A stretch of 64,000 bases of DNA from contig OX439133.1 in assembly GCA_949318235.1 (NCBI GenBank), positions 23,092,101 to 23,156,100 of the forward strand, given 5' to 3'. The stretch's first letter is position 1. Each line of letters starts with the position of its first letter. The notes under the pieces were generated by a model that saw nothing but the letters and a program-made list of their open reading frames with translations, was not told the origin of the DNA and made no database searches. This DNA comes from Ecdyonurus torrentis (lineage: Eukaryota; Arthropoda; Insecta; Ephemeroptera; Heptageniidae). This document shows, piece by piece, positions 24,501 through 42,500 of this stretch. Made by a program: the position numbers and the translations under genes.

Positions 24501-27500
24501 AGTATTATAAATATAAATGTAAAAGTAGCACCAATTGCGCATATAGTATGTGTTTTGAATTTTCCTGTCTGTTAATTAACCTTGACGAATACGATGTATA
24601 TTGTATACGATTGAAGGAAAGAGAGAAATAAAGAAATTTTGAATTTAAATTGTGATAGGACTGATTATAGCTAACTTACTAGAGTTGTTATCAATTTGTA
24701 TCTGTGGTTGTACTTGTTGTTGCTGTTGTTGTATCTGAGCAATTTGTTGTTGTGGGATCTGGTTCTGGAACTGTTGGGTAGTCACCTGGGTCACGATCTG
24801 CTGGGGTCGCTGGAACTGAACAATCATAAGTAAAGTTAGTTACTGTATTGTTATTGTACATTTATATATCATCTGCCCATGGTCAAACCTTCTTACTCCA
24901 CGTATTGCTATGCTAAAGCTATATCTGGAAGGAGATTTGATTATGGCATGGACGCCATGGACGATATGATGTTTACGTATCATCAAACTATAGTCTTTTT
25001 TTTTTTTTTTTTTTTTTTTTTTTTTACATTTTGGATGGATGCATTTTAATTTTCCTAAAATCAGTCATGGAGTACTTTCACAATGAACGTAAATGTGTTT
25101 ATTATTATTATTTTAGCTCATAAAAAATTGCATAGTAAAATGCAACTAATGTTTTTACATGGGCTGTATTTTGGTATGCAAATTTTTATGGGCGGAAGAA
25201 AAATGTAAAAATAAAGTAAATTTACTCTTCTTTTTAATGTTGCAACAATAGCGTTGAAAGTATATTTATACAGAATCATACGTCCATTATGCAACCTTTA
25301 ATAATAACATAATAATTAACCTTTAGTAATAATAAACATTCTTTTGAAATTAGACTTTTTTTCTAGAAATTTTTTTACGGAAAACAAATTAATGTGTAAA
25401 TGCACTTATACTTTAGATTTAAAAGTACGTACATACATATCAGAACTAAGACATAAAACAAAACTATAAATAATTGGAATTCATTTTACATTTTTTGTAT
25501 CATACCAATGCATATATAAAATGTTAAAAACAAAATAGTATAGTTATCATATAATTGAATGATAAAGGAATAACTGTTTTGAGGCTGACTTTAAGCGATT
25601 TCGCTCACATTCGCTTCCGTTTCGACTTATTACGCATGCGTAGTTTGTCGAAACGGAAGCGGATGTAAACGAAATCACTTAAAGTCAGCTTCAAAACAGT
25701 TGTTTCTATATAAGTCAATCCTGGTTTAGTAACAAGAACATATTAATACATATAAATAAAGTCTCTGAATGATAATGGCAATGTATCAATGTAATTATAA
25801 TAGCAATGTATATAGTAAGCTGTTATAGTGAGTATAGTTAATATGTTAATAAAAGTTTCACCTGTTGTTGTGGCTGTTGCTGTACAGGCTGTACAAACTG
25901 TTGTTGAGGCTGTACAAACTGCTGTGGCTACATTTGTGCATGTGCGTGACAAGAGAAAAACAGAAGAAAAGCAAAAAGCAGCTAGTTAGAAGTCATCTAG
26001 TTAAGCAGAGAATGTGATATTAAAATTAGTTTTGTTACATTTTGCAATAGCGTTCAATATTATTGCAATAATAAGAGATTTGAAGATATTCTGATAGAAT
26101 ATTTGAAATTAAGAAAAATGAAAATTGGTAGCTAGTACACTCAATTGTGATATGATATTTTAGCATTCAAAATTTTGAGCTAAATTTTTTCAATGATAAA
26201 ATTTTAATAAAAAAAAAAAGAAAAAAATCACTGAGTTAAAATACTTTAACAATCATTATGTGCTATACACTTTTAACGTAAAAGGAGGCCGATTTGGACT
26301 AGAAATCGTTAAAAGAGGAACTATATTTTCATAATAATTCTTTGTACATTCATTATTTCCAGCAAAATAAACAGTGTCATTTTTTAATAAAATCGAGTAA
26401 ATTAAAAACAAACAAAAAGTTTCTTTGTTCCACACTAAAAAATTTCGTTAGTAATCAACGGAATAAGTGTTTTTTCAACGGTTATAAGTGTTGATAATTA
26501 ACGTTTCAAAACTCAACTCTTATTGTATTGAAAACTCAACGCTTAAGTACAATTTCACTTTAAACGTTGATTTATCAGCATAAATAGAGTTGATAAAAAC
26601 CGTCAATTTTCAACGGAATAAACGTCCTTCTCCACCTAATTAGAAATAATATAAAAACTTACTTCACACAATTTCCTGTGTTCTATGCGAAAAATCAAAA
26701 TATGCACAAGAATAAATAGTGTTTATTTTTTATTCTTTAACTAGAATCAACGAAAAAAAAATTTGAGTTTTTTTTTATTTCTGCCCAAAAAGTGCGTTTT
26801 TTTCGAAAAGTTACCAACCCGTTAGAAATTTTATTACATTTTTGGATGTAACTCGATTTTTCATACCCAAATCGGTCATCCAAAAATTTATGATACAGTA
26901 TATACTAATTACCAGTTAAATTTGGTTCTTTATCATCTAATTGTAATTAAGCGTTGATTATAAACGTTTGTGACGTCACACGTAAGCGTTAAATATCTAC
27001 GTTTAAAGCATGACGAAACTGTGTACAAGCTTTTCAACGTTTAGAACGTCGATTATACACGTCTATTTTTTAGTGTGTCCAAAAATAGTTTTAATAATAT
27101 TTTTAACTTTAAAAAACTTTCAAATTTTTATTATTAATTTAATAATTTTATTAATTTTAATTTCTTAATAATATTATTATTATTAATTATTTATTTTATA
27201 TAAATGTTAGCCGTCGACAATCGACAGTGTAATTATGGTGTTAACTAATACCAATTGCTTCATCACTTCTCTAGGTAGTGACAAACTGGAAAAAAAATTA
27301 AGTGGTTATAATTGTTATGTACTGTATGTAATGTAATAAGTGATATGGATCAATAACAAGTGACAACTGTTCTATAGGTACGATAGGACAAGCTAATATC
27401 GATAGTCAATTTTTTGGCGAAATTCCCTATCTTTTAATATTGAACAAATAACACGTGAAATTTCAAAAAATCGTTCGTGTCCTATCGTGTCTGTAGAATC

Positions 27501-39500: not shown

Positions 39501-42500
39501 TGGAAAAAAAAAGATAAAAAATAAAGCTAAGCTAATTTAACGTAGTATTACAAAAGAGAAGCATATATAAAAAAGTTAGTGTGATATTAGTTGTAAGGTG
39601 CAACAATGTTACCTGTGGCTGTATGATTTGTTGAGGTCTTTGTGTAGGCTGTACAATGATTTGTTGTTGAGGCTGTACAAACTGCTACTCGTGTGTTATT
39701 GTTGTTACAACAGAAACAAGAAAGAAAAGTGTGCTGGGTTACAAAGTGAAAGTGAAATAAAAGTTATAAGAGGTTTTGTCACATCTTATTTGACATGTAA
39801 GTATAATATGAATCTTTGAGTTTTAATTTATCGACCAACCAACGAACCGATAAATAAATTATTCAATCAATTAATCAATCGATCGATCGATCGGTTGATC
39901 AATGAATCAATGAATCAATCAATCAATCAATCAATCAATCAATCAATCAATCAATCAATCAATCAATCAATCAATCAATCAATCAATCAATCAACAATAA
40001 AACCATCGATAAATCAATTAATCAATCAATAAATCAATACGTAAAAGGCTCGAATAAAAGAAAAGTTGATAAAGGTATAGTATTGAGAAATGTGAGACTA
40101 TTATGAAATGTTAACAATATTAATGAAGTTAATTAAGCAGATTAAGAGGTGATTAGAGATCTTACCTGTTGTGGCCTAGGTGTTGGCTGTACGAACTGTT
40201 GCTGAGGCTGAACAAATTGTTGCTGAGGCTGTACAAATTGTTGTTGTTGAGGCTGTTTTATTGTTCAGTGATGTAAGCAAGAGTAGTGAAACAGCAGAGG
40301 AAAACAATATGGAAAGTAGGAGAAAAATTAGTGGAAATCTAATTATTAGGAAGCGTATTTAACGAAGTATGAAAATTAGATTATATTAGAAATAATATAA
40401 ATGGTTAAAAATAAAGATATTGTAAAAACCAACATGTAATTTCAACTGGATATTATTTGATTTCTATATATTTTTTGGTTTTTTAAATTTATTTTTTATT
40501 TTTAAATCTAATTTCATTTTAAATTTTAGAATTTGTCTTTTAAAATCCCAAGATAATTTGTACTTTTCCAATACAATAATAATAAATTACATATTAAAAA
40601 AATATATAAAAACAATAAAAAATGGAGAAGAAATTTCATATTATTTTCTTGTGTCGTAAAGTGTGCCTATAGGCTAGTATCAATCATTTAAACATTTTTG
40701 ACCTCACTGTCAGTGCACTATAGATTTTCTTAAAAATCAGTGCACATATTATTGTTCCTGTAATGCTTAAAGATAAAAAATCAGGAAACGCTAAATCTTT
40801 TAGCACACCTTACCGGTAATCTCCGTTAAGAGATTAAAAGCAATGAAATCTGTTAATATGATTTAAGATTAATAGTAAGCAAAGTAATGTAGTTCAATGT
40901 AAAATTTGGATCTTATGTATGTACGTTATGAGTGAAAAGGAGTATAGAACAACTAGTTATTATTATTATTTTTTGACTCACCTGTGGTTGTACGAACTGT
41001 TGTTGCGGCTTTTTTCATGTTTAGTAGAGAAGAAAGTAGTGCAGTGCGGCACAAGCAGAGAGTGTGAAGAGATGAGATGGTAGTAGATGAGAAAATGTAA
41101 AGATAAAATGAGTAAGTGATCTATGGTCTTTGTTATACCACTTAGAAAATATTTACGTAGTGACAAGAGAATACTTAATATAATGAGATTAATGAGCGTT
41201 ATTTTGTGAAATAAGAGAAATATGTAGGAAATTTTATTATATATTTGTAGAAATAAGTAATATTTAGTAATGAAAGTAAAAAATTGATTATAATAACATT
41301 AAAATTATATAAAAAAATCAAAATTAAAAAATATAAACTTTGCAAAAAAAAAAAAAAAAAAAAAAAAAAAAACAACGAGGAAAAAATGAACGAACGAACG
41401 TTTTCACTACCTAAAACTAAAGCTACGTTACTCTTGAGCACCTACCTGCTGGAACTGTTGAGTGACGAACTGCTGAGGCTGTCTGACAGGCTGTACAAAC
41501 TGCTGCTGCGTGAACTGTGGTCTGATAGTTGGTACAGTGACGACTCGATTAGTGGTAGTGACCACTACGGGTGGCAATGTTGCAGGAGGTATGAACGGTA
41601 CGGTGTTCTGTATAGGCCTGATGGTTACTGGGGCTCTAGGCGGTGTAAACGGTATGGTCACTGAGCTTGAGGCAACAGTTGGCCGTAGTGTGGGGTTGAA
41701 TGGACGTGTCGGAGGTTCAGGGGTTGTAGTAGTGGTACGTGGGGCTGAAATTTGAGATGTCAATCAAGTAATTGGCAGTTCTTTTTATTGTCTTGAGGCA
41801 TAATCAGGAAACATAAATCAATCAATTAACCAATCAATCAACCAAGCTAACATAATTAGTACGTACTAGTGCTACCAAAAATTTCCAGATTTTGAAATCC
41901 GGATTAAAACACATGCGAAATCCGCTTTTTATCCAAGAAACTACTGACTCTCCCTTCCCGAGAGGGTTTGTAAATAATATGCTTCCTGTAGAAATTTTAT
42001 TACTTTTATGATCCAATTTTATTTTATCTGTCTACAATCCAAATAATACAGATCCGAATTTTTTTTAATCTGGATTTCTCAATTCAGATAATTATTATCT
42101 GCACTTCAAATTTGAAAATTATCCAGTATTTTGACAGCACTAGTACGTACAAAGAAGTTCAAATTTTTATTTGTACTTACGTGGTCTGGTAGTAGTTGGT
42201 GGTGGTGGACACTGGTCCTCATTCTCTTGTGTGTTACATTGTTGCAGACAGTTCATCCTGCTCCTTGGAATATCACACGTGTCAGTGCAGCCTTGGATAT
42301 TGTCATTGTTACAGCCTTCTAGACAGCTGGTGGGATCTCGTAGGCTCTCTGTACATACATAATCAAACATTAGTAATAATTACAGAATTTTAAGGAAAGA
42401 AAGGCGTTCCTACACATTTATTCTTCGTCAAAATGAAGTTTCTAAACTTTAAAAATTTCCAAGGAATGAGCAATCTACATGTATCCGCATGACGTCATAT

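What the first reader, a model, noticed from the sequence alone, without database searches (positions are those of the whole stretch)
24680..41008. Amplified array of twelve phase-0 Gln-rich mini-exons
Exons of 27-87 nt, all 0-0, encode variants of PQQQFVQP / QIIVQQAP and are spread over 16 kb. Each can be gained, lost or skipped without frame damage, so the array looks like a machine for making length isoforms of a Gln-rich linker. Gln-rich repeats could be transglutaminase acceptor sites (inference).
Basis: partly seen in the sequence, partly recalled or inferred. Interest (0 to 1): 0.8.

Follow-up and report, generated by a model that had tools for sequence, protein, structure and literature searches.

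The report
Twelve-exon Gln-rich spacer, insect peroxidase
A gene for a secreted insect (probably mayfly) oxidising enzyme carries twelve tiny in-frame exons that spell a glutamine-rich spacer, and the unusual weak splice signals in front of most of them suggest that the cell can vary the spacer's length, although no RNA has been seen to prove it.

Summary
On the minus strand lies a 33-exon gene (46684 to 6465, 1,512 aa) for a CLIP-type animal haem peroxidase (An_peroxidase 6.5e-205); its closest relatives are two mayfly proteins (69-71%). Exons 7-18 are twelve phase 0-0 mini-exons of 27-87 nt (288 aa, 139 Gln). The scan finds 12 in the array region and none in 200 shuffles.

Added here: as a set, the twelve have a 3' splice-site design that differs from the gene's other 20 acceptors: weaker acceptors, long CU-rich tracts, long AG-free zones, UGC near the AG, more CUAAY. 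This is much of the published code of fly microexons (PMC8797185), except that introns are long and donors strong. Best reading: an old exon-duplication array encoding a linker whose length is set by regulated exon skipping (about 0.6; no RNA available). Recent amplification is not supported except for M11/M12. The transglutaminase idea is untested; the array has no Lys. Closest parallels: P/Q-rich SCPP genes, titin PEVK, schistosome micro-exon genes.

The parts
6465..46684 (-). whole gene: CLIP-type animal haem peroxidase, 33 coding exons, 1,512 aa (ATG at 46684, stop ends at 6465)
   Evidence: spliced open frame with AG/GT introns; Pfam An_peroxidase 6.5e-205
41446..41744 (-). exon 6 (299 nt, phase 1-0): Thr/Pro-rich, ends in QFVQP-type repeats; left border of the array
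40982..41008 (-). mini-exon M1, 27 nt, PQQQFVQPQ
40166..40252 (-). mini-exon M2, 87 nt, PQQQQFVQPQQQFVQPQQQFVQPTPRPQQ
   Evidence: also met in the genome searches
39613..39684 (-). mini-exon M3, 72 nt, QFVQPQQQIIVQPTQRPQQIIQPQ (hybrid of the two repeat types)
38681..38758 (-). mini-exon M4, 78 nt, TITPTPPLPQIIYQQNPAPPQIIQQQ
37190..37267 (-). mini-exon M5, 78 nt, PIITQAPPPAQIIVQQVTRPQQYVQQ
35025..35102 (-). mini-exon M6, 78 nt, QLPITQPPTQFFVQQSPRPQQIIQQQ
33981..34061 (-). mini-exon M7, 81 nt, QQQQQQQITQTPTRIIVQQAPQQIIQQ
33010..33090 (-). mini-exon M8, 81 nt, PITQSPPPQIIVQQAPI + 10 Gln
31271..31336 (-). mini-exon M9, 66 nt, QQQIQQPQIIVQQAPQQLVQPQ
30455..30538 (-). mini-exon M10, 84 nt, QQFVQPQQIQTTPAPIIV + 10 Gln
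28430..28495 (-). mini-exon M11, 66 nt, QQQFVQPQQQFVQPVQQQPQQQ
   Evidence: paralogue of M12 with shared upstream flank
25862..25927 (-). mini-exon M12, 66 nt, PQQFVQPQQQFVQPVQQQPQQQ
   Evidence: paralogue of M11 (5 synonymous, 1 amino-acid change)
24680..24815 (-). exon 19 (136 nt, phase 0-1): Gln-rich right border of the array, not frame-neutral
25928..26027 (-). example of the acceptor design (100 nt before M12): CTAAC, CU tract, 52-nt AG-free zone, TGC, then ATGTAG; the other mini-exons have most but not all of these features
42181..43107 (-). exons 4-5: 22-Cys domain, Cys spacing mostly alternating 4 and 8-9
   Evidence: no Pfam match and no public relative at E <= 1 among 14 candidates
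23191..23370 (-). exon 20: CLIP-like Cys domain directly after the linker
   Evidence: Pfam CLIP E 0.0064, 17.1 bits, below its cut-off of 20; some relatives are labelled Clip domain-containing

Best explanation
A real, coding, old exon array lies inside one gene. By repeated exon duplication the Gln-rich spacer between the N-terminal part and the CLIP/peroxidase part of a secreted insect haem peroxidase came to be written as twelve frame-neutral mini-exons (shown: anatomy and frame; coding constraint in one pair; inferred: duplication history, secretion). As a set they are preceded by weaker acceptors with long CU-rich tracts, extended AG-free zones, UGC near the AG and more CUAAY motifs than the gene's other exons (shown). 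I infer that these exons are poorly recognised by default and are included, singly or as a block, under a splicing regulator (candidates: the Srrm234/eMIC-U2AF route, whose SRRM_C domain the genome encodes, or a PTB-type factor), so that the enzyme is made with linkers of 0 to 288 extra residues. The reach and stickiness of the linker would decide where in an extracellular matrix the peroxidase sits (inference).
For: Exon anatomy and frame. Not chance: 12 in the array region vs 0 in each of 200 shuffles. Coding constraint: M11 vs M12 differ by 5 synonymous and 1 amino-acid change (dS about 0.64, dN about 0.02; one pair, 11.7 synonymous sites). Duplication: M4-M9 align in the same register with small gaps; M11/M12 share exon plus 82-86 nt of upstream intron. 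Acceptors, mini (12) vs other acceptors of the gene (20): acceptor score p 0.001; CU-tract score p 0.0006; AG-free zone mean 81 vs 53 nt, p 0.005; TGC within 60 nt in 11/12 vs 8/20, p 0.003, but not further upstream (p 0.69); TCTC/CTCT p 0.012; YYYY p 0.0007; CTAAY p 0.04 upstream and 0.026 downstream. Against 1,000 shuffles of the same bases within 40-nt blocks: AG-free zone 3/1000, TGC 0/1000, TCTC 8/1000, CTAAY 0/1000 as extreme for the mini set. A six-feature rank score separates the two sets (AUC 0.95), and of 21 contiguous 12-exon blocks the array scores highest. The same features are given for Drosophila eMIC-dependent exons (PMC8797185, section 10 read). SRRM_C domain in the genome (3.8e-9 on the 52-residue stretch alone).
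Against: No transcript evidence at all. Two features of the fly code are missing: donors are not significantly weak (p 0.13) and introns are long (median 963 vs 867 nt). Also negative: the CU tract is not further from the AG (p 0.62), pyrimidine content next to the AG does not differ (p 0.27), the looser branch motif YTAAY does not differ (p 0.31) and UGC downstream does not (p 0.14); AG depletion against shuffles is seen before the other acceptors too. The acceptor matrix was trained on the other 20 acceptors, which favours them. The published programme is neuronal, an odd place for a secreted peroxidase. The twelve exons are paralogues, so p-values treat related exons as independent; the block test can reach no better than 1 in 21, and its six features had already been seen to differ on the same data. 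Searches were exploratory; TGC, UCUC and CUAAY were then taken from the paper and tested. No other short exons of this species served as a control. Of the 12 top-scoring acceptors two are ordinary exons (26 and 31), so M3 and M5 fall outside.
Confidence: 0.6

Rival explanations
1. Constitutive array: all twelve exons are always included and simply make a very long Gln-rich spacer; the long CU tracts only compensate for short exon length between long introns.
For: Strong donors (92nd-100th percentile of 3,190 GT on the strand), no decayed copies seen among the introns, intact frames.
Against: Compensation would explain long CU tracts but not weak acceptor scores, UGC near the AG and long AG-free zones; [quoted passage not shown]
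Confidence: 0.3
2. Intron gain: one long tandem-repeat exon was cut up by insertion of about 13 introns at CAG|GT-like sites, rather than an exon being copied.
For: All 13 introns sit after a CAG codon; tandem Gln-rich repeats occur in this spacer at protein level in other insects (for instance P0011, Macrosteles; its exon structure was not seen); intron flanks as a group share no more than those of ordinary exons.
Against: Exon ends coincide with repeat-unit ends in M4-M9, and M11/M12 were copied together with 82-86 nt of upstream intron.
Confidence: 0.08
3. Transglutaminase substrate: the spacer's glutamines are cross-linked to lysines of other matrix proteins, and exon number sets the number of acceptor sites.
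For: 139 Gln in 288 residues; 16 Q-x-P sites (that this spacing favours mammalian TG2 is recalled, not tested). A review lists peroxidases and transglutaminases among enzymes of an insect eggshell (PMC13409908, passages).
Against: No Lys in the array and 21 Q-P pairs, which by the recalled rule are poor sites; no biochemical or expression data. Compatible with, not alternative to, length regulation.
Confidence: 0.08
4. Dead block: the mini-exons are no longer spliced and drift.
For: Nothing positive; weak acceptors could be decay.
Against: No stop or frameshift in any of the 12 exons, amino-acid conservation between M11 and M12 with synonymous change, strong donors, non-random acceptor motifs.
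Confidence: 0.03

Closest known systems
Proline/glutamine-rich SCPP genes of vertebrate enamel (ameloblastin and kin)
   Same: secreted P/Q-rich matrix proteins, phase-0 introns, lineage-specific tandem duplication of small exons that lengthens the protein, frame-safe alternative splicing (PMC4518657, PMC6732285, PMC7807025; passages)
   Different: vertebrate calcium-binding phosphoproteins without this enzyme domain (recalled); virtually all their introns are phase 0, whereas this gene has phase 1 and 2 introns outside the array
Titin PEVK exon array
   Same: many short repetitive exons for a flexible region whose length varies by alternative splicing; often missed by automated annotation (PMC6469411, passages)
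   Different: muscle spring with over 100 such exons, about 70% Pro-Glu-Val-Lys; here 12 exons with no Glu or Lys
Schistosome micro-exon genes
   Same: short exons, mostly multiples of three, between long introns; secreted products; several splice isoforms (PMC10526429, passages)
   Different: genes built of 10-20 very short exons, mostly 15 nt; here 12 of 33 exons, 27-87 nt, inside an enzyme gene
Srrm234/eMIC-dependent microexons of insects
   Same: weak 3' splice site, long AG-exclusion zone, UGC near the AG, long UCUC-rich tract, CUAAY (PMC8797185 section 10; tested)
   Different: longer exons (27-87 vs median 31 nt), long introns, strong donors, one gene, not known to be neuronal
CLIP-domain insect peroxidases ('chorion/salivary peroxidase-like')
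   Same: related enzymes, many with a Gln-rich spacer before the CLIP domain
   Different: 753 aa before the CLIP domain here against 61-344 aa in the 31 of 120 listed proteins that matched my CLIP expression, and 22 extra Cys absent from those 31 (Cloeon's model did not match it). Exon structure of relatives was not seen.

Membership tests
CLIP-domain animal haem peroxidase | complete An_peroxidase domain | tested here: met
   PF03098, 6.5e-205, positions 1-530 of 530
CLIP-domain animal haem peroxidase | CLIP domain before the enzyme | tested here: inconclusive
   Pfam CLIP 17.1 bits, cut-off 20; the Cys expression that fits this stretch also fits 31 relatives, some labelled Clip domain-containing
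eMIC-dependent microexon programme | weak 3' splice site | tested here: met
   p 0.001 against the gene's other 20 acceptors, on a matrix trained on those
eMIC-dependent microexon programme | long AG-exclusion zone, UGC near AG, UCUC-rich tract, CUAAY | tested here: met
   as a set and not in every exon; CTAAY has one-sided p 0.05-0.08 in 3 of 8 subsets
eMIC-dependent microexon programme | weak 5' splice site | tested here: not met
   p 0.13, donors in the 92nd-100th percentile
eMIC-dependent microexon programme | short flanking introns | tested here: not met
   median 963 nt against 867 nt for the gene's others
eMIC-dependent microexon programme | inclusion depends on the eMIC domain, neuronal | not testable with these tools
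   no RNA; the genome does encode an SRRM_C domain
P/Q-rich SCPP | virtually all introns phase 0 | tested here: not met
   6 of 19 introns outside the array are phase 0
Schistosome-type micro-exon gene | gene built of very short exons | tested here: not met
   12 of 33 exons, 288 of 1,512 aa
Titin PEVK | about 70% Pro/Glu/Val/Lys | tested here: not met
   139 Gln, 49 Pro, 22 Val, 0 Glu, 0 Lys of 288

The most novel reading that the evidence does not exclude
The twelve exons form one co-regulated block: a microexon-type splicing programme (eMIC/U2AF-dependent, so far described for neuronal exons) has been recruited to a secreted matrix enzyme, where it works as a length dial, switching the peroxidase between a short- and a very long-spacer form in a tissue- or stage-specific way.
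Probability: 0.25. Interest if true: 0.78.

Novelty: new variant of a known kind. Interest (0 to 1): 0.52.

Why it matters
Length-variable regions made from arrays of short in-frame exons are known for a muscle spring, for enamel proteins and for parasite secretions. Here such an array sits in the gene of an extracellular oxidising enzyme, and its acceptors share a testable design that peaks over the array and is weaker on either side. It offers a compact case for asking how a whole exon array is kept under one splicing rule after most of the exons' flanks have lost any other detectable similarity. It also suggests that gene models of relatives may miss such exons.

Tried and rejected
Recent amplification: rejected except for M11/M12. 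Hidden, decayed or opposite-strand mini-exons in the window: none seen. Other copies in the genome: none seen, but the searches were narrow. The M2+M3 peptide met only M2 and M3 (2 of 2 matches) and missed the other ten mini-exons, and the DNA pattern covers only the QQFVQPQQ type (5 of 5 exact matches, in M2 twice, M10, M11, M12). The QIIVQQ type was not searched by itself. Relatives among public proteins: none for the array at E <= 0.001 among 7,945 scored candidates and none for the Cys-rich stretch at E <= 1 among 14 candidates. Codon-level selection for frame-keeping splice dinucleotides: 53 of 64 AG and 22 of 29 GT within the array keep frame, but random synonymous recoding gives 0.86 and 0.74, so it follows from the Gln/Val-rich peptide. 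GCATG (a motif I recall as Rbfox-type) lies upstream of 4/12 vs 1/20 exons, p 0.04: noticed by eye first, so not relied on. Structure of exon 4 alone: mean pLDDT 59.9, pTM 0.37, not usable. Paper searches: none of the listings (titles and starts of abstracts, open-access library only) shows such an array in an insect peroxidase; one search returned no paper.
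Full report
What is there. The finding lies in a gene on the minus strand. Reading exon by exon with AG/GT borders gives a complete coding sequence of 33 exons from an ATG at 46684 to a stop ending at 6465, 1,512 residues. Pfam finds a full animal haem peroxidase domain (6.5e-205) and a sub-threshold CLIP domain before it; the nearest solved structures by sequence are myeloperoxidases and lactoperoxidases, with peroxinectin A further down. Of 7,980 scored candidates 1,815 public proteins matched the CLIP-peroxidase part and the best 120 were listed; the top two are from mayflies, Neocloeon triangulifer (69%) and Cloeon dipterum (71%), and the next full-length matches, cockroach and other insects, are at 63% or below. 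I infer that the window is from a mayfly. The tool places it in contig C12 of an unnamed 503-Mb assembly. The start of the protein looks like a signal peptide to me; that was not tested.

The array. Exons 7-18 (M1-M12) are 27, 87, 72, 78, 78, 78, 81, 81, 66, 84, 66 and 66 nt, all phase 0-0, and the 13 introns around them are 437 to 2,502 nt long. They encode 288 residues: 139 Gln, 49 Pro, 31 Ile, 22 Val, 12 Phe, 5 Arg, 2 Tyr, no Lys, Asp, Glu or Cys. Two repeat types occur: PQQQFVQP (M1, M2, M11, M12, and the end of exon 6) and a QIIVQQAPQQIIQQ type (M4-M9), with hybrids M3 and M10 between. A scan for Gln/Pro-rich phase-0 exons with a good donor found 12 in the array region, none in each of 200 shuffles and none on the plus strand of the window; its cut-offs were set after the looser scan. 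None of the 91 possible junctions between exons 6 to 19 makes a stop.

Coding constraint and history. M11 and M12 differ by five synonymous and one amino-acid change (dS about 0.64, dN about 0.02), so the peptide is held while synonymous sites drift; the numbers are small and this is one pair. Their DNA match covers the exon, 82-86 nt of upstream intron and 11 nt downstream. For the other pairs, flank similarity is no greater as a group than among the gene's ordinary exons (5% vs 6% of pairs above z 3 in the 100 nt upstream), and neighbours are not more alike than distant exons (rho -0.13, p 0.14). So the array is mostly old, and the introns have since been remade, partly by palindromic elements. 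No dead exons were seen. In the genome the QQFVQPQQ-type pattern matched five times, all five in these exons; a peptide of M2 and M3 matched only those two exons. That second search missed the other ten mini-exons, so copies elsewhere are not excluded.

The acceptor design. The mini-exons have strong donors (92nd-100th percentile of 3,190 GT) but weak acceptors (12th-99th percentile of 3,141 AG, against 83rd-100th for the gene's other 20; p 0.001; the matrix was trained on those 20). Their upstream introns carry long CU-rich tracts (p 0.0006). A paper on fly neuronal microexons lists the code of exons that need the eMIC domain of Srrm234: very weak 3' sites, long AG-exclusion zones, UGC near the AG, long UCUC-rich tracts, strong CUAAY branch points, weak donors and short introns (PMC8797185, section 10 read, other passages). 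Tested item by item on 12 mini against 20 other acceptors: AG-free zone 81 vs 53 nt (p 0.005), UGC within 60 nt in 11/12 vs 8/20 (p 0.003; further upstream p 0.69), UCUC p 0.012, YYYY p 0.0007, CUAAY upstream p 0.04 and downstream p 0.026. Local base composition alone does not explain it: in 1,000 shuffles 3, 0, 8 and 0 were as extreme for AG-free zone, UGC, UCUC and CUAAY. In eight subsets of the exons four of the five features stay below one-sided p 0.05, and CUAAY does in five of eight. A six-feature rank score has AUC 0.95, and of the 21 contiguous 12-exon blocks in the gene the array block is the highest.

Results against this reading. Donors are not weak and introns are not short. The CU tract is not further from the AG (p 0.62), pyrimidine content next to the AG does not differ (p 0.27), the looser branch motif YTAAY does not differ (p 0.31) and downstream UGC does not (p 0.14). 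AG depletion against shuffles is found before the other acceptors as well. Ordinary exons 26 and 31 score among the top twelve, and M3 and M5 do not. The exons are paralogues, the first contrasts were exploratory, and the six features had been seen to differ before they were combined. Long AG-exclusion zones also mark human exons with distant branch points, which are more often alternatively spliced (PMC1431707, passages). The genome encodes an SRRM_C domain, so the candidate regulator's domain is present; whether it acts here is unknown.

Comparison with relatives. Before the CLIP domain the window protein has 753 residues; the 31 of 120 listed proteins that matched my CLIP expression have 61-344, with Gln 13% or more in 27 of 31 (Cloeon's model did not match the expression). 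A Gln-rich spacer is thus common in these enzymes; whether relatives write it in one exon or many was not seen. In the Neocloeon protein labelled isoform X2 the segment that matches the window's exon 2 (150 nt, phase 0-0) is absent while Cloeon has it (compared by eye); in-frame exon skipping in another mayfly is one explanation, an incomplete model another.

Mechanism. Shown: open, frame-neutral exons; constraint in one pair; an acceptor design concentrated in the array. Inferred: low default recognition, regulated inclusion, a linker of variable length that positions the peroxidase in an extracellular matrix. Peroxidases cross-link eggshell proteins in several insects (review PMC13409908, passages), but the tissue of this gene is unknown, and the array offers only two Tyr, so it is unlikely to be the dityrosine substrate itself.

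Place among known things. It works like the exon arrays of titin PEVK (PMC6469411), P/Q-rich SCPP genes (PMC4518657, PMC6732285, PMC7807025) and schistosome micro-exon genes (PMC10526429), all seen as passages only; by the tests listed it belongs to none of them. None of the search listings shows such an array in an insect peroxidase.

Noticed in passing
42181-43107 (exons 4-5, minus strand): A 22-Cys domain with nearly regular spacing (4, then 8-9, repeated; one 6), i.e. about eleven CX3C pairs; no Pfam match, no relative among 14 public candidates, absent from 31 relatives. A low-confidence model is partly helical. The genome search for it did not complete.
   Followed up: partly
25554-25719, 32424-32780, 33467-33641, 37752-38163, 39055-39277 and others: Palindromic, MITE-like elements in the array's introns, several of them in families repeated elsewhere in the gene; they may explain the long introns.
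   Followed up: partly
12862-12990, 21079-21233, 28740-28935, 31981-32175, 43236-43390, about 52700-53300: Very long microsatellites, among them CAAT-type arrays in introns and an AAAGG-type array of about 600 bases, inferred from the open frames.
   Followed up: no
60279-60698 (-) and 60764-61246 (+): Two open frames on opposite strands that share a stretch of protein and look like transposase remains (label from memory, no search made).
   Followed up: no
33010-33090 and 30455-30538: M8 and M10 each end in ten glutamines coded by mixed CAA/CAG, possible sites of length variation between individuals.
   Followed up: no
genome G000, contigs C4, C8, C10, C11, C12, C15, C20: 84 exon-level matches to animal haem peroxidases, the window's own exons included, so a sizeable gene family.
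   Followed up: no
100 nt upstream of M5, M6, M9, M10: GCATG in 4 of 12 mini-exon upstream regions against 1 of 20 others, noticed by eye before counting.
   Followed up: partly
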